Positions 1 through 40,646 of a stretch of DNA of 64,000 nt are shown in pieces. The stretch covers positions 1-64,000 of IMG/VR virus record IMGVR_UViG_3300032296_003403. One strand, 5' to 3'. The notes beneath the pieces were generated by a model. The model did no database searches, was not told where the DNA came from, and saw only the letters and a program-made list of their open reading frames with translations. The DNA comes from a virus. Position 1 is the stretch's first letter, and each line of letters opens with the position of its first letter. The translations under genes were made by a program, and so were the position numbers.

Positions 1-3000
1 ATGATCCAGATGAGCCAGATGATCCACTAGTTCCTGATGTTCCTGTAGATCCAGATGAACCAGTCGACCCTGATGATCCAGATGAGCCAGATGATCCACT
101 AGTTCCAGAAGATCCATCTTTACCTGATGATCCAGATGAGCCAGATGATCCACTAGAACCACTAGTTCCTGTTGAACCGGATGTTCCAGTACTACCTGAG
201 GAGCCTGATGAACCTCTAGTTCCAGAAGAGCCTGAGGAGCCAGATGACCCTGAAGTACCGCTAGAACCTGAAGTGCCAGTAGATCCAGAACTACCTGATG
301 TGCCAGACGATCCACTAGAACCTGTGGAACCTGAAGATCCACTAGTTCCAGAAGAGCCTGATGTGCCTGAGCTTCCGGAAGAGCCTGATGTGCCTGAGCT
401 ACCTGAACTTCCGCTAGAACCTGATGTTCCATTTTGACCATCTTGTCCAGGTCTTCCTAAAAATCCTATGCTCCAGTTACAATATGATCCAGAACCAACT
501 GATTCAATAGTTGTGTAAGTTATGGTAGTAGATGTTGAAGATAAAACTCTTCCTATTATATAGTTACTAACATCATAAGAAATTATTACATACTGTCCCG
601 GTACCCAACAAGTGTCTCCGCTATAGCTTATAGTGTTTTGTGAGCTTCCACTTCCTTGACATAATATATTTACAGTCCATGTATCAGAAGAAGAGGATAT
701 TGATGTTTCAACTACTAAATAGTAGGTATCTGTATCTACATTTATAGTAGTGTTTCCTGCTGTTGCGGCGTTGATAGAGCCTCCCCAAGGACCTGAGTAA
801 GAGGCGCTTCCAACCCAACCACTAGTCCATACATTAGTTAAAGTTGAATCTTTAACAGTAAACCTATTAGGCACATCAATAGCGTACCATTGTAAGAATA
901 TAGACCCTGAAAATGTTTCGTAGCTTAAAGTTTTTGATGGGTATGTATAAAATCCTGTGGTGCCTCCTGGAGAAGATTCTGTGAAGGAATAATCATTACA
1001 AACACTTGCTGTGCTTGAAATATTAATACATGATGTAGATGTTATACATAAATCAGGGGTTCTTCCACTTGATCCAGAGGAACCTGAGCTTCCAGAAGAT
1101 CCACTAGATCCACTAGAACCTGAAGTTCCTGAAGATCCTGTACTACCACTTGATCCGGAAGTACCGGAGCTACCTGATGAGCCGCTAGTGCCTGAAGATC
1201 CACTAGTTCCTGTACTACCACTTGATCCGGAAGTACCTGAAGAACCGCTACTACCTGAAGATCCTCTAGTACCGGAGGAGCCTGAACTTCCACTAGTTCC
1301 AGAAGACCCTGAAGATCCAGTAGAGCCAGAAGATCCTGATGTACCACTAGTTCCGGAAGAACCAGAAGTCCCACTAGAACCTGAACTTCCACTAGTTCCT
1401 GATGATCCAGAAGTACCTGAAGATCCTGATGTCCCTGAAGAGCCACTAGTTCCTGTGCTACCTGAGGAACCTGTAGAACCAGAGGAACCAGATGAGCCAG
1501 ATGTACCTGATGATCCATCTTTGCCTGAAGAACCACTAGAACCGCTAGAGCCTGAACTTCCACTAGAACCACTAGTTCCAGTAGATCCTGAAGAGCCTGA
1601 AGTTCCTGTGCTACCACTAGATCCTGACGTACCTGATGACCCTGAGGAACCAGAAGATCCACTAGTTCCTGTAGATCCTGACGTACCTGTACTACCTGAT
1701 GATCCGCTAGAGCCGCTAGTACCGGATGATCCACTTGTTCCTGTGCTACCACTTGATCCTGAAGATCCGCTAGTACCAGTAGAGCCACTAGTACCTGTTG
1801 ATCCAGAAGTACCTGAAGAGCCAGATGTTCCTGTACTACCTGATGATCCTGATGATCCACTAGAACCAGATGTTCCTGTACTACCAGAAGTACCCGTAGA
1901 CCCAGAAGACCCAGAAGTTCCACTAGATCCAGAAGTACCGAAAGTCTCTCCTGATGTTCCACTAGAACCTGCAGTTCCTGAAGAACCTGACGAACCTGAA
2001 CTTCCTGAAGATCCTCTAGTTCCTGAAGAACCTGATGATCCGCTTGTGCCAGTAGATCCAGAACTACCTGAGGTACCTGAGGAGCCACTAGTACCTGTAG
2101 ATCCACTGGACCCCGATGTGCCTGAGGAGCCAGAAGTACCAGTACTACCAGAAGAACCACTAGTACCTGAGGTACCGCTACTTCCTGATGTGCCAGAAGA
2201 ACCCGATGTTCCACTAGAACCAGAACTTCCTGAAGTTCCAGAAGACCCGCTAGATCCAGTGCTACCTGATGAACCAGTAGAACCTGATGAACCACTAGTT
2301 CCTGTAGACCCAGAAGAACCACTTGTACCAGTAGAACCTGATGAACCACTAGTTCCTGTAGACCCAGAAGAACCTGATGATCCACTAGAACCAGAAGACC
2401 CCCTAGTACCAGAGGAGCCTGATGAACCAGAAGAGCCTGAAATGCCTGATGTACCTGAAGTGCCTGTTCCTACATTTGCATATCCGTATACCCTAAAAGC
2501 TAATACTCTACTAGCTACGTTAGCATTGTTAACTACAGATTGAGAAACTGTTATTCCTAAAGTAGTATTACCTGTTTGACTTCCTGAAATAATTGAAGAT
2601 AAAGTCGTTACTATTCTATCTCCACTATCTGCACCAGCTGCGTTTGAAGATATTATTCTTTCAGTATAGGTACCTATTACAGCACTTCCTGAATAAAATC
2701 TCCAGATGTAATCTGCTCTAGAGTTAGCATCTACCTCATACCTATTTTGAACTATAGCCTCTACTTTTATATGACTGTAGCTATTAGAAGGGAGTGTATA
2801 TGCTTTTAAGTTTGTACTTTCACCACTTCCACTATAATCAGTACTAAATGTTTCATCGTAGTATATCAGATTCATAACATTAGGAATCGAGCTACTTCCT
2901 GTATCGATACCCGCTGTACTTATAGAAGCTGTTCCGTTTACTATTACTGCTGTTATGTTTTGAGCGAAATTTAAATACTGTATTCCTGTTCCCTGTACTA

Positions 3001-5263
3001 CACCATCATCCGCTATTGTCAGTGATATAGAAGATCCACTAGAACCAGACGAACCTGAAGTACCAGTAGATCCGGAAGTACCTGATGAACCTGCCGATCC
3101 ACTTGAACCCCTAGACCCGGATGAACCAGAAGTACCGCTAGATCCTGAAGTACCTGTGCTACCAGATGATCCAGAAGTGCCGGAACTACCAGTAGAACCA
3201 GAGGTTCCTGTAGATCCGGAAGTACCGGATGATCCGCTTGTACCAGTAGAACCAGATGAGCCAGTAGAACCGGAGGTGCCAGATGAACCACTAGTTCCTG
3301 TACTACCTGATGTACCTGTAGACCCAGAAGAGCCTGATGTACCTGAACTACCTGTACTACCACTAGAACCTGATGTACCTGTACTTCCACTAGAGCCACT
3401 AGTTCCTGAAGAACCAGACGAGCCACTTGTACCAGTAGATCCTGAACTTCCACTAGAACCTGAGGTACCTGTAGAGCCGGAAGAGCCGGAAGTACCAGAA
3501 GAACCATCTTTACCGGAAGAGCCAGAACTACCTGATGTACCGGAAGAACCAGATGTACCTGTAGACCCACTAGAACCTGATGATCCAGATGAACCACTAG
3601 ATCCAGAAGATCCACTAGTTCCAGAAGATCCATCTCTACCTGCTGAACCAGAAGAACCACTTGTACCTGCTGTACCGCTAGATCCGTCTCCTCCACTGGC
3701 TCCTGCTAAGTTTATTTCCCAACTAGAATAAGTTCCAGATCCTACAGTTAAGTTAGGAGTTCCATACACTAAAAGACCAGTTAAAACATTATATGATATT
3801 ACAGGAACCTCTTGATAGTTGTTTACGTCATAAGCAATTATCGCAGTTTGTCCTATAGAATAAGCTAATCCGGGTTCTACATACAAAGATCCACTTTGTC
3901 CCAATGTAATAGAACCTGTAGAAGAAGTTAAATATCTATCTCCAGAAAGTCCTGCAGATCCACTAGATCCTGAGGAACCTGATGTACCACTAGAACCAGA
4001 GGATCCAACTGTACCACTAGATCCAGAAGTGCCTGATGATCCTGAAGTACCACTAGAACCTGTTGAACCTGCTGTACCGGAACTTCCTGAGGTTCCAGAT
4101 GAACCACTAGTTCCAGTACTACCGCTAGATCCGGATGTACCTGTGCTACCAGAAGACCCAGTAGATCCTGAAGAACCTGATGAACCCGTAGATCCAGATG
4201 TTCCTGAACTACCTGAAGATCCTGCAGTTCCAGAACTGCCAGAGGAACCTGATGTACCTGTACTGCCACTAGATCCAGTACTTCCAGAAGATCCAGAGGT
4301 GCCAGAAGAACCACTAGTACCACTCGATCCTGATGTCCCGGAGGAACCAGATGTACCAGAAGATCCACTAGTTCCTGAAGATCCGCTACTACCAGACGTT
4401 CCAGATGAACCGCTAGAACCAGAAGTTCCTGATGATCCCTCTGCTCCTGAAGATCCACTAGATCCTGATGTACCGGACGATCCATCTACCCCGGAAGATC
4501 CACTAGATCCTGATGTACCGGAAGAACCCTCTGCTCCTGAAGATCCGCTAGAACCGGATGTACCAGAAGTACCTCCACTTCCTGAAGAACCAGTAGATCC
4601 AGTCATTCCACTAGTGCCTGATGTACCAGAAGTACCTCCGCTTCCTGAAGAACCAGTAGATCCTGTTGCTCCACTAGTACCAGAGGTTCCTGGGGCTCCT
4701 TGGGCTCCTGATATTCCAGAAGTACCTGAAGAACCAGAAGATCCATCACTTCCAGAACTTCCACCTATTCCACTAGTAGAGTATTTAAATTCTCCAGTAT
4801 TAGGATCTATTACTACATAATAGTCAGCACTAGATGTGAATTGTAAATAAGGGTTATATATAGATCCTGATATAAACAGAGATCCTGTAAATTCATGGGT
4901 GTCATCTATGGTATCTCCAAATTTAGTAGATCCTGATGAATACAAAATTGAAGAAGATTGATAGCTAATTACAAGAACATCTATAGAAGCTGTACCGTGT
5001 ATTACTAAATCTCCATAAATAGATTGACTTCCATAGAAAATGTTAGATCCAGTAGTGGCTAAAGAAGCAGATTCTCTAGTAAAAACAGGGTCTACTTCAT
5101 TGAAATGTGATGCAGATAAGGCATAAGAAGCAGATTCTACAGAACCAGAAAAAGATCCTGTAAAAGAACCACTAAAAGAACCTGCTGTAATTGTACCATA
5201 GGAAGTTATATTATTAAACGAAGCATCTCCTCCTTCACTCGGTACTTGTAGCCAAATAGCCAT
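1..5263 (-). CDS. Giant collagen-like tail fibre / appendage protein (C-terminus outside window)
   Basis: I read this frame codon by codon through its non-repetitive parts and found no stop from the ATG at 5263 to base 1, so at least 1754 residues are encoded and the gene continues off the left edge. Residues 1-157 form a head with short beta-type repeats (TAGSFSGSFTGSFSGS). Four blocks of Gly-X-Y triplets follow, dominated by GSS, GTS and GST: about residues 158-441, 521-744, 928-1401 and from 1611 onward. Three non-collagenous domains separate them (442-520, 745-927, 1402-1610). The last contains Cys and Trp and precedes GRPGQDGQNG. This is a trimeric-fibre design, probably a tail fibre or head/tail appendage. 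The triplets contain almost no proline, so stability must come from Ser/Thr-rich packing or glycosylation. The gene sits downstream of the gp13-gp14-gp15 cluster behind an ATATTTATA motif. Position as receptor-binding fibre is inferred. Confidence 0.85.
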   Translation of the reverse strand, partial: MAIWLQVPSEGGDASFNNITSYGTITAGSFSGSFTGSFSGSVESASYALSASHFNEVDPVFTRESASLATTGSNIFYGSQSIYGDLVIHGTASIDVLVISYQSSSILYSSGSTKFGDTIDDTHEFTGSLFISGSIYNPYLQFTSSADYYVVIDPNTGEFKYSTSGIGGSSGSDGSSGSSGTSGISGAQGAPGTSGTSGATGSTGSSGSGGTSGTSGTSGMTGSTGSSGSGGTSGTSGSSGSSGAEGSSGTSGSSGSSGVDGSSGTSGSSGSSGAEGSSGTSGSSGSSGTSGSSGSSGTSGSSGTSGSSGTSGSSGTSGSSGTSGSSGSTGSSGSTGTSGSSGSSGTAGSSGSSGTSGSTGSSGSSGSTGSSGSTGTSGSSGSTGTSGSSGTSGSSGTAGSTGSSGTSGSSGTSGSSGTVGSSGSSGTSGSSGSSGSAGLSGDRYLTSSTGSITLGQSGSLYVEPGLAYSIGQTAIIAYDVNNYQEVPVISYNVLTGLLVYGTPNLTVGSGTYSSWEINLAGASGGDGSSGTAGTSGSSGSAGRDGSSGTSGSSGSSGSSGSSGSSGSTGTSGSSGTSGSSGSSGKDGSSGTSGSSGSTGTSGSSGSSGSTGTSGSSGSSGTSGSSGSTGTSGSSGSTGSSGTSGSSGSTGTSGSTGTSGSSGTSGSTGSSGSTGTSGSSGTSGSTGTSGSTGSSGTSGSSGSTGTSGSSGTSGSSGSRGSSGSAGSSGTSGSTGTSGSSGSSGSSISLTIADDGVVQGTGIQYLNFAQNITAVIVNGTASISTAGIDTGSSSIPNVMNLIYYDETFSTDYSGSGESTNLKAYTLPSNSYSHIKVEAIVQNRYEVDANSRADYIWRFYSGSAVIGTYTERIISSNAAGADSGDRIVTTLSSIISGSQTGNTTLGITVSQSVVNNANVASRVLAFRVYGYANVGTGTSGTSGISGSSGSSGSSGTRGSSGSSGSSGSSGSTGTSGSSGSTGTSGSSGSTGTSGSSGSTGSSGSTGSSGSSGTSGSSGSSGTSGSSGTSGSSGTSGTSGSSGSTGTSGSSGTSGSSGSTGTSGSSGTSGSSGSTGTSGSSGSSGTRGSSGSSGSSGSSGTAGSSGTSGETFGTSGSSGTSGSSGSTGTSGSTGTSGSSGSSGSSGSTGTSGSSGTSGSTGTSGSTGTSGSSGSSGSTGTSGSSGTSGSSGSSGSTGTSGSTGTSGSSGSSGSSGTSGSSGSTGTSGSSGSTGTSGSSGSSGSSGSSGSSGKDGSSGTSGSSGSSGSTGSSGSTGTSGSSGTSGSSGTSGSSGTSGSSGSSGTSGSSGTSGTSGSSGSTGSSGSSGTSGSSGSSGTRGSSGSSGSSGTSGSSGSTGTSGSSGTSGSSGSSGTSGSSGSTGSSGTSGSSGSSGSSGSSGSSGSSGRTPDLCITSTSCINISSTASVCNDYSFTESSPGGTTGFYTYPSKTLSYETFSGSIFLQWYAIDVPNRFTVKDSTLTNVWTSGWVGSASYSGPWGGSINAATAGNTTINVDTDTYYLVVETSISSSSDTWTVNILCQGSGSSQNTISYSGDTCWVPGQYVIISYDVSNYIIGRVLSSTSTTITYTTIESVGSGSYCNWSIGFLGRPGQDGQNGTSGSSGSSGSSGTSGSSGSSGTSGSSGTSGSSGSTGSSGSSGTSGSSGSTGTSGSSGTSGSSGSSGSSGTRGSSGSSGSTGTSGSTGTSGSSGSSGSSGSSGKDGSSGTSGSSGSSGSSGSTGSSGSTGTSGTSGSSGSSGS

Positions 5264-9681: not shown

Positions 9682-11319
9682 TTAGAATCCGTTGTTAAGA
9701 TCTGCAACATGCACTTTACCAAAGAATTCGGCACGAAGCATTTTCTTAGCGTACCTGGTCATCAGACCTTTTCTTGGAGTGAAAGTCTCAGGATCATACA
9801 ACAATGGAGTCATGATCAATGGAATATAAGGACAGAAGGCAGCGCCAGTCTCAAGGAATTGGCTACCTTTGTAAGCCAAGAGAATAGTGTTCTCGTTCAT
9901 GTATGGGTTAACATACACTTTGTAACGGCTATTCAATTGACCAGCCTTGTGAGAGCCCATTGCAAATTCTTCTTTGCTACCATCGGTATCTGCAGCATAT
10001 CCAGGGATAGACTCGATAATTGTGGCAACAGCAGGAGAACACATTACAACGTTAGCTTGACCACGAAGGGTTTTCTTATGGATAGTCCTAGCTACACTTT
10101 GGATCTTGGTTCCGAGAGTTGCGAACCAGCCACCTTGTGTATTGTAGTAACCACCAGAACCAGCATTTTGAACACTCCACACTCCAGTAGCCTTGTTGTA
10201 GAAGGTATTGGAAGCAGCGGACCAGTATTCAGTAGTGTTGGCGTTTTGGATCAACATGTCGATGATTTCGAGGTCGATCTCAAGAGAGATATATTCTGAC
10301 AGAGTAGAGGTCAACTCAGCTTCAGCGTCAAGAGACTGGTAAGCATTCAGGTCTTGGCTGAATTCAGGAGTCCACTTAGCTTTCAGTTTCCTTGTTTTAG
10401 CAACTACAGCCTCAGAACGAAGTTCTACATTGATCTCAGGGATTGAGTTAGAACCAGTCAAAGGAGCTGCGCTTGTGTCTTCAAAGTCACCACGGCTGTT
10501 GTCAGCAGGCTGCTTTTGATAGAACAAAGAACCAGAGCTAGAACCATAGTTCAGGTGAGAACCAGAACCAGAAACTACGAAGAAAATAACTCCAGTAGTA
10601 GAGTTATAAGAAGTGAACTCAGCGATAACATTAGACTCGCTAACACCGCTACCAGTTACCATGAAGCCACGTACACCGTTCAGATCAATACCAGTATAGC
10701 TAGATGCACTGATCGCTACTTTACGGAGTTGACCAGCAGCTTGAGATGCACTATACAGTGAGTTGAAGTTGATATCGGCTTGAGAAGCAGTTGTTACTGC
10801 AGCTGTGTAAGAACCAGAGTAAGTGTTGATAGAGTAGCCAAAACGACCAGCGCCGTAAAGACCACCAGAAGGATCAACATCTTTTACGTTGGTAGTACCG
10901 TACATGCTGTCACCAATAGCGAAACGGTTGTTACCTACAGTACCTGGCTCATTCTTACCATACTTAAATTCAAGGAAGAATACAAGACCAGCAGGAAGAG
11001 TCATTGGTTGAACACTAACGAATTCTTTTGAAGAAATGTCAGCAAAAATCTTACGAACAAGAGGAAGAGCTACGCCAGCCCATTGCTCACCGCTACCTAC
11101 AGTGAAAGAACCACCAGTACCAGTTTGAGATTGTTCAACTAAAAGTTGCTTAGCTTGATTTTCGAGGATGATAGCCATACGCTCTTTACCGTAGGCTTGC
11201 TTTTGAAGGTCAGCACCTTCCAAAAGACCAGTCTCACCCCATTTTTTTACTAACCTCTGAGCTTCGTTCATCATTGAAGCATAAGGGTTAGAACTTTCTA
11301 AGAGAGATTGTACGTTCAT
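9682..11319 (-). CDS. 23: Major capsid protein, gp23-like
   Basis: This is the hexameric shell protein of the T4-like head. The N-terminal region resembles T4 gp23: a helix with ENQ (residues 53-55), then LLVE/QSQTGTGG near residues 59-70, a likely gp21 cleavage site of L-x-E type (after Glu62). EFVSVQPMTLPAGLVFFLEF matches T4 DICGVQPMNSPTGQVFALRA. The C-terminal TPRKGLMTRYAKKML is also family-like. At 545 aa it is close to T4 (521 aa). Its codons are visibly richer in G/C than neighbouring genes, as expected for the most highly expressed protein. It lies between scaffold and a strong terminator, and its leader is almost pure A/T with no Shine-Dalgarno sequence. Confidence 0.93.
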   Translation of the reverse strand: MNVQSLLESSNPYASMMNEAQRLVKKWGETGLLEGADLQKQAYGKERMAIILENQAKQLLVEQSQTGTGGSFTVGSGEQWAGVALPLVRKIFADISSKEFVSVQPMTLPAGLVFFLEFKYGKNEPGTVGNNRFAIGDSMYGTTNVKDVDPSGGLYGAGRFGYSINTYSGSYTAAVTTASQADINFNSLYSASQAAGQLRKVAISASSYTGIDLNGVRGFMVTGSGVSESNVIAEFTSYNSTTGVIFFVVSGSGSHLNYGSSSGSLFYQKQPADNSRGDFEDTSAAPLTGSNSIPEINVELRSEAVVAKTRKLKAKWTPEFSQDLNAYQSLDAEAELTSTLSEYISLEIDLEIIDMLIQNANTTEYWSAASNTFYNKATGVWSVQNAGSGGYYNTQGGWFATLGTKIQSVARTIHKKTLRGQANVVMCSPAVATIIESIPGYAADTDGSKEEFAMGSHKAGQLNSRYKVYVNPYMNENTILLAYKGSQFLETGAAFCPYIPLIMTPLLYDPETFTPRKGLMTRYAKKMLRAEFFGKVHVADLNNGF

Positions 11320-24917: not shown

Positions 24918-25496
24918 TTAATTTTCTAACCTTTCTTTCATTTCTTTAAGCTCCTCTTTCCATTTTTCGACCATTTTATCCTTATCTATACCACCTTCCC
25001 ACTCTTCCACATCTCCTTGTTCAGTTACATAGGTTTCTTTTACATTAGACCTTACAAATTCTTCTATAAACTGTTCCGCTTCCTCTATATGGGTTATTAT
25101 GTTTTTAGTAATCATATTTTTCTTATACTCCTCATATTTTCCTTCCATTTTAAGCCTGCTTTCCATTACAACTACGCAATTAAAACACATACCGTGTAAA
25201 GGGTACATTTTTTTATCTAAAGCGTTTTTTGTCGGTTGTGAACATTTGGGACAGAGTAAAGGAATTCTAGTTAGCTTTTTAATCCTATCTAGTTTAGTTA
25301 CGGTTTGTTTTATACCGTCTTTTATAGTCCAGGTTTTATCCCCCTCTTCCCAAACATCACCTTCTACGTGATCTTCTGTTTGTTTTTCATACCCTACTTG
25401 TACGCCTGTAGAATCTCCGTATTTCTTAGTAATAATGTTCCTGAGGCGTTGTACGTCCCTTTCCCTAAACTCTTTCTTTAATTTTGTTTCTGACAT
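24918..25496 (-). CDS. Zinc-ribbon protein of unknown function (192 aa)
   Basis: A treble-clef-like Cys arrangement is seen in LLCPKCSQPTKN followed by MYPLHGMCFNCVVVMESR, giving CPxC and CxxC pairs that could hold one zinc. The N-terminal part has a helix (EFRERDVQRLRNIITKKYGD) followed by a beta segment. The C-terminal half is an acidic/basic coiled coil (VEKWKEELKEMKERLE). I recall similar proteins in large T4-like phages without assigned function. No capsid-targeting-like N-terminus is present. Confidence 0.6.
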   Translation of the reverse strand: MSETKLKKEFRERDVQRLRNIITKKYGDSTGVQVGYEKQTEDHVEGDVWEEGDKTWTIKDGIKQTVTKLDRIKKLTRIPLLCPKCSQPTKNALDKKMYPLHGMCFNCVVVMESRLKMEGKYEEYKKNMITKNIITHIEEAEQFIEEFVRSNVKETYVTEQGDVEEWEGGIDKDKMVEKWKEELKEMKERLEN

Positions 25497-25511
25497 AACT
25501 ATAGTTTTATT

Positions 25512-25946
25512 TTATAATTCTTTAAATTTTTCCGGTTCAAATAGAATGACTTCTATTCCTCTTTTTATTCCATCGTATCCTTTAGATTTTAGATATTCTA
25601 CATCTCCGTAACCGGATCCTTGGGTTACTGGAAATGAATATCCTGATTCTTTTGATGCTTTTTCCGCCTTATCTTTTAGTTCTTTGGATTTTTCTGGAGA
25701 ATCTAGTTTATACAGGTTAGCTCCAGTTATATCTATCTTATAAACATTTTTACCTCTGAATTTATTGTCTCTTAGATTATCCTCAGCTCCTTTTCCAGTA
25801 TAAAAATAAACTCCTGGATAATACCCTGAAGGGGTTGAATTAGATTTTCTATCTTTCCAATGGTAGTCACTGACTCTTATTGCTATGTTGTCATCGACTA
25901 TTTCACTCAATACAGAGTTTTTTAATATATCGATAAACTTTATCAT
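25512..25946 (-). CDS. Putative ADP-ribosyltransferase-like protein with capsid-targeting-like N-terminus
   Basis: The 144-aa protein begins MIKFIDILKNSVLSEI, an amphipathic helix with an L-x-E step like its neighbours. The remainder has the pattern of the small ADP-ribosyltransferase-like domains of phage polyvalent and MuF-linked proteins: GVYFYTGKGAEDNL (45-58), NVYKIDITGANLYKL (67-81), then LKSKGYDGIKRGIEVILFEP (119-138). The YDGI followed by a valine-rich strand and FxPE is the most characteristic part. A complete R-S-E triad cannot be assigned with certainty. T4 Alt is a targeted, injected ADP-ribosyltransferase, so this could be a miniature analogue. Confidence 0.5.
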   Translation of the reverse strand: MIKFIDILKNSVLSEIVDDNIAIRVSDYHWKDRKSNSTPSGYYPGVYFYTGKGAEDNLRDNKFRGKNVYKIDITGANLYKLDSPEKSKELKDKAEKASKESGYSFPVTQGSGYGDVEYLKSKGYDGIKRGIEVILFEPEKFKEL

Positions 25947-26206
25947 AGTTTTTTTATTCTTATTTTTAAATCACCTGTTCCTTTTATAGCCCTATGCCAC
26001 TCTCCCATTGGTATATAAATCTGCCCTTCTATTTTAATAGGAAGTTCCCCGTCTTTCTGAAAAAACCAATCGGTAGGTTCTATGGGCTCAATTATTCTGT
26101 CCTCCCTGTCTCTATGCCACCTTAATTCCCCAGAGTCTACGTCTGCTTTAAACACCCTTTCGTACCAACCTTCATTATATAACTCAGTATAGGGTCTGTT
26201 TTCCAT
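25943..26206 (-). CDS. Cupin-like small phage protein (87 aa)
   Basis: After an N-terminal helix (YTELYNEGWYERVFKADVDS) the protein has ELRWHRDREDRIIEPIEPTD, then QIYIPMGEWHRAIKG and a final strand. The spaced His residues (WHRD and EWHR) on predicted beta strands suggest a small cupin-like barrel, with the His and Glu possibly holding a metal. I recall similar WHRDxEDR proteins in T4-like phages of unknown function. It overlaps the next gene by four bases. Confidence 0.55.
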   Translation of the reverse strand: MENRPYTELYNEGWYERVFKADVDSGELRWHRDREDRIIEPIEPTDWFFQKDGELPIKIEGQIYIPMGEWHRAIKGTGDLKIRIKKL

Positions 26207-26212
26207 TTTACT

Positions 26213-26590
26213 TTATTCTATGCTATATTTAGATTTTATGTACTTTTCTACTTCTTCTGGATCATAAGAAAGCAGTCCTCCTATTTCTCTGGTCTCTTCT
26301 GGTGTGGCTTTGTAGCTAAGGTACCCTCCGTACTTATTTGCTATTTTTTCTAACCTCTCTACTTTTTTTTCACTCCCCGGTCTATAAACTATATAAAGAC
26401 CTTGAGGATTCTTTTCTACTTTCTTTATTAAGAGCCCTTCTTTTTCTATCTTATCTCTTAAAAAAGAATAGTGATTTCCTAGAACTCCTACATCTCTTCT
26501 ACGATCTATAACAGTTTGAAGAGAGTCTTCATCATCATAGGCTTCTTCTGGCTTTATGTATTCCAATAATATGTTTACAAGCTTTACCAT
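26213..26590 (-). CDS. Hypothetical protein with capsid-targeting-like N-terminus (125 aa)
   Basis: It begins MVKLVNILLEYIKPEEAYDD, where LLE resembles the gp21 processing site, followed by an acidic stretch. The rest appears to be an alpha/beta domain (LRDKIEKEGLLIKKVEKNP, GLYIVYRPGSEKKVERLEKI) ending in a helix. No family recognised. The start overlaps the upstream stop (TAATG), so it belongs to the same translational unit as the surrounding putative internal head proteins. Confidence 0.5.
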   Translation of the reverse strand: MVKLVNILLEYIKPEEAYDDEDSLQTVIDRRRDVGVLGNHYSFLRDKIEKEGLLIKKVEKNPQGLYIVYRPGSEKKVERLEKIANKYGGYLSYKATPEETREIGGLLSYDPEEVEKYIKSKYSIE

Positions 26591-38300: not shown

Positions 38301-40646
38301 TTATGGAGGAGTACAAAGTGTTCCAGGAGTTGTAGAAAGTGTCCATGTGCTTTGTGAAACTGCGGTCTGGTCATTTCCTGGGCCTGTCAATATGTAGATG
38401 GCCTGGGTTTCCTGGATACATATAGGATCGCTTGGTGTGGTAGTGCCTCTTGCTATAGTAGTAGTGCCAGTACCGCCACAAGCCTTATACTGGAAGTATA
38501 CATTACCATCATTTGAAGCATCGATGTTTGCTTGATCTGCTGTAGCTACCCATAAATAACAAACAGGAGTCTCTGTTGGTGTAGGTGTAGGAGTGCTAGT
38601 AGGTTCAGGAGTAGGTGTAGGAGTGTTAGTAGGTTCAGGAGTTGAGGTAGGAGTAGATGTTGGAGTAGGGGTAGGTGTTGCTGTAGGTACTGGTGTACAA
38701 TCGCCAGCTCCCATACAAGAAGTTCCTAAGTAGGTCTTAATTACTATATCAGATCCTCCCGAACATGAACTAGGTGATGCACCTGTATATGTTCCAAGTA
38801 TACTATTTCCTGTATTCGCCTGTATACATATTACAGATGTTTCTCCTCCTGAGCCTGCTGGTCCTAAATTAGTGAAAGTTGCAGTACCATCTCTGTAAAT
38901 GTAAGATACACACAAATAATCAGTACTTGAACTATTAGTTATTTGCCAACAATCACCTGGTGTTGGAGTGGGAGTAACGGTGGGGTCAGGGGTTACAGTT
39001 GGAGTTGAGGTAGGAGTAGATGTCGGGGTAGCAGTAGGAGTTGCTGTTGGAGTAGGAGTTGGGACACATCCTCCACAAGGGGTGTTACCTTTATTCCAAG
39101 TAATACAATCTACATTTGTATTGTCACAAACAGTATCATTTGTATAAACAGATCCATCTTGGGCACAAGTTATATAGGTAGTGTTGCCATTCCCAGAACA
39201 AATTATACTTGTGTTATTTCCAGCACAATCAGTATAGTATACAGTTTTACTTATTGAATAATAGTTTGTTACTTCATATTGATAACAACAAAGTGGAGTA
39301 GGAGTAGGAGTACTAGTAGGTGTTTCAGTCGGAGTATTAGTTGGAGTAGGAGTAGGAGTATCTGTTGGAGTAGGAGTTATAGTAGGTGTATTTGTAGGAG
39401 TGTTAGTTGGAGTAGGTGTTGGAGTTTCAGTAGGAGTATTAGTTGGCGTAGGTGTAGCTGTTGGAGGTTCAGGAGTAGGGGTGTTAGTAGCAGTAGGAGT
39501 TGCTGTTGGAGTAGGAGTATCTGTTGGAGTAGGAGTTATAGTAGGTGTAGCTGTTGGAGGTTCAGGAGTAGGAGTCGGTGTTTCAGTTGGTGTATTAGTT
39601 GGCGTAGATGTAGGAGTAGGTGTAGCAGTATCTGTTGGAGTAGGAGTCGGTGTTTCAGTTGGAGTATTTGTAGGAGTATTTGTAGGAGTATTAGTTGGAG
39701 TAGGAGTAGGAGTATCTGTTGGAGTTGAAGTTGGAGTAGGGGTACTAGTAGGCTCAGGAGTTGGAGTTAAAGTCGGAGTTGGTGTTGGTGTTGGAGAATC
39801 TCCACAAGTTCCAGGACTTACAGAAGAACAAACACTTACTGATTGAACTACTCCATTAGAATCTATCAGTACAGAATACCCATTTCCTAAAGATCCAACT
39901 CTAGTAATTCTATGATAATCATTTAGACCCCCCTGTAAAGTATTTCCAGAAGTGTCTGAGTATAATTGTTTGCCTACTAACTCATTAGGACCATCAACTA
40001 AAGCATATGCAAAAACTCCTACAGTTACTGTAGAATCGCACGCTTCACCGCAAGTTCCAAACCCAGCCGCTGACACTAAATAAGCATAGTACACAGGAGT
40101 GGCGGTTGGTGTGGCTGTTGGAGTGTTAGTAGGTGTAGGGGTGCTAGTTGGAGTAGAAGTAGGAGTATTTGTAGGAGTATTAGTTGGAGTGGATGTAGGA
40201 GTATTAGTTGGAGTTGAAGTTGGTGTATTAGTAGGGGTAGGAGTACTGGTTGGCGTATTAGTTGGGGTAGGTGTAGGAGTCTCTGTTGGAGTAGGAGTTG
40301 GCGTATCAGTTGGCATTACAAAAGGAGCAGTGGGGGTAGGCGTAGAGGTAGGAGTGTTGGTAGGCGTAGCCGTAGGAGTTGGTGTTACAGTAGGAGTAGG
40401 AGTAGGAGTGTGAGTTGGAGTTATAGCACACGGAACAGATATATTAACATATTCCGCACAATCATCTGTAGATAACACTTTTACATACAAAGTAGTATCT
40501 GGCACACTGGTTACATATCCAGACACTAGCTGAGATCTAGTAACCCCTGTCTCAAACGGAGTTACTAAGTCAGTATCTAAATACAGATCAAAAGGACCTG
40601 CGTTAGCGGCTACTGAAGTTAGTGTTATTTTTATATACTGTGCCAA
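38301..40646 (-). CDS. Mucin-like multi-domain appendage protein C (781 aa)
   Basis: The start is TTG (40646); an in-frame stop lies just upstream and no early ATG exists. Residues 1-70 are the adaptor also found in proteins A and B ([23 protein letters not shown]). Then four Thr-Pro/Ser/Glu linkers (about 75-182, 283-452, 527-564 and 650-693) alternate with four small Cys-containing domains. Domains at about 452-526, 565-650 and 693-781 look like relatives (start [24 protein letters not shown]; later [24 protein letters not shown]). The layout is beads on a glycosylatable string, lying 64 bases upstream of the GlcNAc-transferase gene. Confidence 0.75.

What the first reader, a model, noticed from the sequence alone, without database searches (positions are those of the whole stretch)
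25512..25946. Possible miniature Alt: ADP-ribosyltransferase-like domain behind a capsid-targeting peptide
The 144-aa product joins the targeting-like N-terminus to a domain resembling phage polyvalent-protein ADP-ribosyltransferases (GVYFYTGKG; NVYKIDITGANLYKL; GYDGIKRGIEVILFEPEKF). T4 Alt, also targeted by such a peptide and injected, ADP-ribosylates host RNA polymerase. A small, single-domain injected version at this size would be new to my knowledge.
Basis: partly seen in the sequence, partly recalled or inferred. Interest (0 to 1): 0.72.

Follow-up and report, generated by a model that had tools for sequence, protein, structure and literature searches.

The report
Small head-packaged ADP-ribosyltransferase-like phage cargo
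A T4-like phage carries, at a spot where its relatives carry other genes or nothing, a small gene whose product has a capsid-import tag joined to what looks like a compact ADP-ribosyltransferase, so it is probably one of several swappable proteins injected into the host with the phage DNA.

Summary
A 144-aa ORF lies on the minus strand at 25512-25946, with coding-like codon usage and an ATGA overlap with the gene before it. Its N-terminus is the window's best match to a targeting-peptide profile trained on relatives. The genome encodes a T4 gp21-type prohead protease, gp23 and gp20. Residues 28-144 carry phage ADP-ribosyltransferase (ART) motifs in order: YH, PGVYF, NVYKIDITGANL, GYDGI, EVILFEP. 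ART profiles score it above 300 shuffles and 18 other window proteins. It misses Pfam's ART-PolyVal cut-off and has no close homologue in the collections searched. A model made with an ART alignment is fair (pLDDT 77); a single-sequence model failed (pLDDT 38). It is not a T4 Alt family member. The gene sits exactly at a junction that is empty in seven relatives and filled with other tagged ORFs in three. Most likely it is a swappable, virion-delivered, compact ART-fold effector. Packaging, catalysis and target are inferred; a usual glycine and second tyrosine are missing. Head-packaged phage ARTs and hotspots of injected proteins sharing a leader are known, so this is a new variant of a known kind.

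The parts
25512..25946 (-). Focal gene, 144 aa: targeting-like leader plus ART-like domain
   Evidence: ORF and coding statistics
25902..25946 (-). Putative capsid-targeting leader MIKFIDILKNSVLSE (residues 1-15), ending in a candidate gp21-type site L-S-E
   Evidence: Best of 73 N-termini against a profile trained on relatives; processing after LxE is inferred from T4 (PMC9026906)
25860..25865 (-). Motif I, Tyr28-His29, aligned with the YHGT of phage ARTs; Trp follows where most have Gly
   Evidence: Alignments A1, A3, A5; placement was ambiguous when the leader was included
25803..25817 (-). Motif II, Pro44-Gly-Val-Tyr47-Phe48 (GxGVYF of ARTs); the second downstream Tyr is absent
25551..25580 (-). 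Motif III region, GYDGIKRGIE (residues 123-132), followed by VILFEP; Glu132 is the candidate catalytic glutamate
   Evidence: 23 of 28 viral stretches matching the degenerate motif are ART-like ORFs
25943..26206 (-). Upstream neighbour, 87 aa, strongly conserved in relatives; left border of the cargo slot
   Evidence: 73-94% identity in relatives
24918..25496 (-). Downstream neighbour, 192 aa, strongly conserved; right border of the cargo slot
   Evidence: 71-91% identity in relatives; 40% in Flavobacterium phage immuto
26213..27183 (-). Two further genes with targeting-like leaders (125 and 197 aa)
   Evidence: 12.9 and 14.0 bits
23436..24891 (-). Three further genes with targeting-like leaders (94, 90 and 300 aa)
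   Evidence: 15.9, 14.2 and 9.2 bits
12622..13230 (-). Prohead protease, gp21 type, the presumed processing enzyme
   Evidence: Pfam Peptidase_S77 E 1.3e-26; phrog_207 head maturation protease E 3.6e-46
9682..11319 (-). Major capsid protein gp23
   Evidence: Pfam Gp23 E 3.3e-76

Best explanation
The gene encodes a head-packaged, injected effector. Its leader (MIKFIDILKNSVLSE) takes it into the prohead core. The gp21-type protease probably cuts after Leu-Ser-Glu15, leaving a domain of about 129 residues with an H-Y-E-type ADP-ribosyltransferase fold (His29, Tyr47, Glu132). The protein enters the host with the DNA and uses NAD+ to modify a host or defence component early in infection. Shown here: the ORF, the leader class shared with neighbouring genes, the T4-type head genes, the ART profile similarity and motif order, and the variable slot. 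Inferred: packaging, cleavage, fold, catalysis and target.
For: Leader: 17.0 bits, best of 73; the six highest-scoring leaders lie in one cluster at 23.4-27.2 kb. Head genes: gp21, gp23 and gp20. ART: the degenerate motif G[YF]DG[IV]x4E[IVM]hxF gives ART-like ORFs in 23 of 28 viral stretches; ART profile 16.3 bits, E 6e-4, and 13.4 bits, E 0.005 without motif-chosen seeds, against a shuffle maximum of 8.8; hhalign probability 92, E 7e-7 over residues 31-144, with none of 18 other window proteins above probability 5. Model with 24 ART rows: pLDDT 76.9, pTM 0.71; its BFVD matches include several proteins named polyvalent or PolyVal ART, and the only PDB chain with Z above 2 (9k3a_B, Z 5.8, 113 residues, rmsd 4.5) maps by residue number to a YHGT...GSGTYFS stretch of an Anabaena phage A-4L protein. 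Slot: a relative carries a tagged ART-PolyVal-like protein in the same cluster (L018, E 9e-7). About 44% of phage ARTs in a published survey lie in head-packaging contexts (PMC9503650).
Against: No match above Pfam's ART-PolyVal cut-off. No homologue close enough to confirm conservation of the active site. The single-sequence model failed (pLDDT 38), and the better model was made with an ART alignment, so it leans towards that fold. Foldseek found no PDB match with E below 5. Most of the similarity sits in the C-terminal motif; residues 15-117 alone are not significant (E 0.04-0.05). Trp replaces the usual Gly after His29 and the second motif-II Tyr is missing, so activity may be lost.
Confidence: 0.58

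Rival explanations
1. The domain has an ART fold but no transferase activity. It is injected as a binding protein, for example an inhibitor of a host defence, like the small T4 internal proteins Ip1-Ip3.
For: Trp instead of Gly after His29 and no second Tyr. The hotspot resembles that of T4 Ip proteins, which share only the leader and each inhibit a particular restriction enzyme (PMC12373910).
Against: Tyr28-His29, Tyr47 and Glu132 all align with conserved ART positions. Some other phage ART domains also lack the Gly after His (YHYT, YHKS, FHTT).
Confidence: 0.17
2. A leader-tagged cargo protein of another fold, with the GYDGI...EVILFEP similarity arising by chance or convergence.
For: No library match; failed single-sequence model; the N-terminal two thirds alone give no significant ART match.
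Against: Motifs occur in the right order; profile scores exceed 300 shuffles and 18 other window proteins; the C-terminal motif is strongly ART-specific in viral DNA.
Confidence: 0.15
3. An ART made in the infected cell but not packaged; the N-terminal helix is not a capsid-targeting signal.
For: No virion proteomics exists for this phage; the leader's role is inferred from analogy with T4.
Against: The same leader type heads five neighbouring genes and unrelated proteins at the same slot in relatives; a gp21-type protease is present.
Confidence: 0.08

Closest known systems
ART-PolyVal (Pfam PF18760) domains of phage polyvalent proteins
   Same: Motif order YH, GxGVYF, NVxPVYL..NP, GYDG[IV], E[IV][IV]xFDP; profile similarity to a set of such domains
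   Different: Below the curated cut-off; shorter motif I-II spacing, no Gly after His, no second Tyr; a stand-alone protein with a leader, not part of a large polyvalent protein
T4 Alt
   Same: Proposed strategy: packaged in the head behind a short cleaved propeptide and injected (PMC9026906, PMC9503650)
   Different: No detectable sequence-family match; H-Y-E-like rather than R-S-E-like motifs, and about one fifth of Alt's length (both from general knowledge of Alt)
T4 internal proteins Ip1-Ip3 and their hotspot
   Same: Small, mutually unrelated proteins sharing only an N-terminal packaging leader, variable between related phages (PMC12373910)
   Different: Ip1-Ip3 are inhibitors of type IV restriction enzymes; no ART resemblance is reported for them there
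330-aa tagged ART-PolyVal-like protein of a related phage (L018)
   Same: Same cluster, same leader type (MIKLIDLLIEVLDE), ART-PolyVal E 9e-7
   Different: Larger, with extra N- and C-terminal segments; two genes upstream of this slot; not detectably homologous to the focal protein by pairwise search
Stand-alone ART-like proteins of contig L074 (189 and 273 aa)
   Same: MKKF/MKTF leaders, stand-alone ART-like domain, contig encodes a gp21-type protease
   Different: Another phage lineage; larger; canonical YHGT motif in the 273-aa protein

Membership tests
ART-PolyVal (PF18760) | Score above Pfam's curated cut-off | tested here: not met
   No hit at E up to 5 or E up to 10 in the genome search
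Phage H-Y-E-type ART domain (broad) | Conserved His, motif-II Tyr and Glu in order | tested here: met
   His29, Tyr47, Glu132 in alignments A1, A3, A5; alignment-dependent for His29
Phage H-Y-E-type ART domain (broad) | Significant profile similarity | tested here: met
   E 6e-4 (0.005 without motif-chosen seeds) for a search space of 1000; hhalign E 7e-7
Phage H-Y-E-type ART domain (broad) | ART fold with NAD cleft | tested here: inconclusive
   Model biased by the ART alignment; BFVD matches weak but partly ART; one PDB match Z 5.8
Phage H-Y-E-type ART domain (broad) | NAD+-dependent transferase or glycohydrolase activity | not testable with these tools
   Needs biochemistry
T4 Alt family | Sequence-family match to Alt-type ARTs | tested here: not met
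   No Alt-type ART model among Pfam, PHROGs or NCBIfam hits
Capsid-targeted internal protein of T4-like phages | N-terminal leader shared with other cargo, with a candidate LxE processing site | tested here: met
   17.0 bits, best in window; VLSE at residues 12-15
Capsid-targeted internal protein of T4-like phages | gp21-type protease and T4-type head genes in the same genome | tested here: met
   Peptidase_S77 1.3e-26, Gp23 3.3e-76, Portal_T4 1.4e-66
Capsid-targeted internal protein of T4-like phages | Present in virions and processed | not testable with these tools
   Needs virion mass spectrometry

The most novel reading that the evidence does not exclude
A fixed cargo slot in this group of T4-like phages exchanges whole effector genes behind a common leader, and one cassette is an active ART of about 129 residues with a reduced active site (no Gly after His, no second Tyr). 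That would make it one of the smallest virion-delivered ADP-ribosyltransferases, perhaps with a target other than that of Alt.
Probability: 0.3. Interest if true: 0.62.

Novelty: new variant of a known kind. Interest (0 to 1): 0.46.

Why it matters
If true, capsid-tagged single-domain ARTs are exchangeable cargo in T4-like phages far from the T-even group, so the leader could be used to list injected effectors of uncultured phages directly from sequence. The compact domain would also test which ART active-site residues are dispensable.

Tried and rejected
Direct homologue searches found nothing: viral contigs, phages, PDB sequences, twelve whole relative records (an empty answer without a positive control shows little), genome contigs and viral contigs with alignment A2 (the one viral hit, L092, is the contig of L087 again). 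Alignment A1 was too diverse to search with. Membership in the Alt family was rejected for lack of any family match. The L005 (181 aa) and L019 (175 aa) proteins look ART-like by eye but did not score against the ART profile, so they are not counted as ARTs. The weak NleE match of the 125-aa neighbour (26213-26590) covers only 21 residues and is treated as chance. The Foldseek PDB search gave no match below E 5. Flavobacterium phage immuto, the nearest isolate by terminase (49%), has no ART-like protein in the corresponding region by this profile.

Full report
What is there. The ORF is on the minus strand, 25946 to 25512, 144 aa. In-frame codon usage matches the rest of the genome (0.284 bits per codon, other frames -0.89 to 0.115, best of 200 shuffles -0.30). 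It starts inside the stop of the upstream gene (ATGA) and ends 15 nt before the downstream gene. The window belongs to a 71.3-kb viral record with T4-type head genes: prohead protease of the gp21 family (Peptidase_S77, E 1.3e-26), major capsid protein gp23 (3.3e-76) and portal gp20 (1.4e-66). By terminase the nearest isolate is Flavobacterium phage immuto at 49% identity.

The leader. I trained a short profile on N-termini of relatives' proteins, none from this window. Of 73 window gene starts, the focal one scores highest (17.0 bits). Six reach 8 bits and all lie between 23.4 and 27.2 kb; of 17,729 internal positions only six do. The training peptides were picked by eye, so the bit values are relative, but the window genes were not used. 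T4 capsid-targeting sequences are short N-terminal propeptides removed by gp21, and ten residues sufficed for targeting (PMC9026906). VLSE at 12-15 fits the gp21 pattern; that it is cut is inferred.

The slot. In about 20 relatives the two flanking genes are 71-94% identical to the window's, while the focal gene is absent. At the exact junction, seven relatives (L007, L008, L009, L010, L012, L018, L020) have nothing (stop, TT, start). L002, L004 and L005 have other ORFs there of 246, 158 and 181 aa, each beginning with a similar leader. L013 is also empty, and L019 has an untagged 65-aa ORF. In the window AAAACTAT stands on both sides of the insert. Replacement of tagged genes at a fixed point is therefore seen directly; the recombination route is not known. 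The same idea is established for T4 internal proteins, which share only their leader (PMC12373910).

The domain. Library searches find nothing. I searched viral DNA for the C-terminal motif in degenerate form; 28 stretches matched and 23 were ART-like ORFs, mostly with YHG and GxGxYF elements (my reading of the sequences). That set was chosen with the focal motif, so I then collected ARTs with patterns from other parts of the domain and built a profile from 42. The focal protein scores 16.3 bits (E 6e-4); without the three seeds that came through its own motif it scores 13.4 bits (E 0.005). The best of 300 shuffles scores 8.8, and no other window protein comes close. hhalign gives probability 92 and E 7e-7 over residues 31-144. 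Removing the C-terminal motif leaves nothing significant, so the case rests largely on that motif plus the ordered PGVYF and NVYKIDITGANL blocks.

Residues. With the leader removed, alignment places Tyr28-His29 on YHGT, Tyr47 on the motif-II Tyr, and Glu132 on the motif-III Glu. With the leader included, one alignment placed YHGT on the leader instead, so His29 is likely but not certain. Trp follows His29 where most ARTs have Gly, and the second motif-II Tyr is missing.

Structure. A single-sequence model failed (pLDDT 38), though its low-confidence strands at 21-30 and 41-50 coincide with motifs I and II. With 24 ART rows the model reaches pLDDT 76.9 and pTM 0.71; this is biased by the alignment and no shuffled control could be run. 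BFVD matches are weak (best E 0.015) but include proteins named PolyVal ADP-ribosyltransferase and a MuF fusion. Foldseek finds no good PDB match. The second look lists one chain, 9k3a_B of the cyanophage A4 pre-ejectosome, Z 5.8 over 113 residues, rmsd 4.5, which is within the range where matches can be coincidental. If that chain is ORF27L of Anabaena phage A-4L (an assumption from name and numbering), the matched residues begin at a YHGT...GSGTYFS stretch, which hmmscan links only weakly to ART-PolyVal (E 0.8).

Reading. The best explanation is a leader-tagged, virion-delivered ART-fold effector at an exchangeable slot. 'Works like Alt' is reasonable as a strategy; 'is an Alt' is not supported. 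Head packaging of phage ARTs is already described as common (PMC9503650), and other stand-alone ART-like proteins with similar leaders occur in a contig with a gp21-type protease (L074). I therefore call it a new variant of a known kind.

Noticed in passing
L018:4-996: A relative has a 330-aa leader-tagged protein with an ART-PolyVal-like domain (E 9e-7, just under the cut-off) and a DUF5872-like N-terminal part.
   Followed up: partly
L074:739-1308 and L074:7115-7936: Two stand-alone ART-like ORFs (189 and 273 aa) with MKKF/MKTF leaders, in a 184.5-kb contig that also has a gp21-type protease.
   Followed up: partly
L002:2819-5269, L013:3293-5614, L020:2605-5370: Large proteins (773-921 aa) with an N-terminus like LIKKILLEE are inserted near the window's 26213-26590 position in some relatives only.
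   Followed up: no
L004:3771-4247: The focal slot in L004 holds a leader-tagged protein with a weak GNAT acetyltransferase match (E 0.04).
   Followed up: no
L005:4741-5286: The focal slot in L005 holds a leader-tagged protein matching phrog_8582 (E 2.5e-7), with a WYYPWDIASGCIW motif; ART-like by eye but not by profile.
   Followed up: partly
L181:4837-5436: In Flavobacterium phage immuto the gene just before the 24918-25496 homologue is an annotated 5'-3' deoxyribonucleotidase whose start (MKKVMGNLADLLLEES) resembles the leader.
   Followed up: no
window 25501-25508 and 25945-25952: AAAACTAT direct repeat at both ends of the focal cassette, at the junction that is empty in relatives.
   Followed up: partly
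window 1011-4820: Long overlapping repeat ORFs on both strands (Pro/Val/Glu/Asp-rich on the plus strand); one reading is probably a collagen-like repeat protein.
   Followed up: no
window 38301-40646: 781-aa ORF with long Thr-Pro repeats between short cysteine-containing domains.
   Followed up: no
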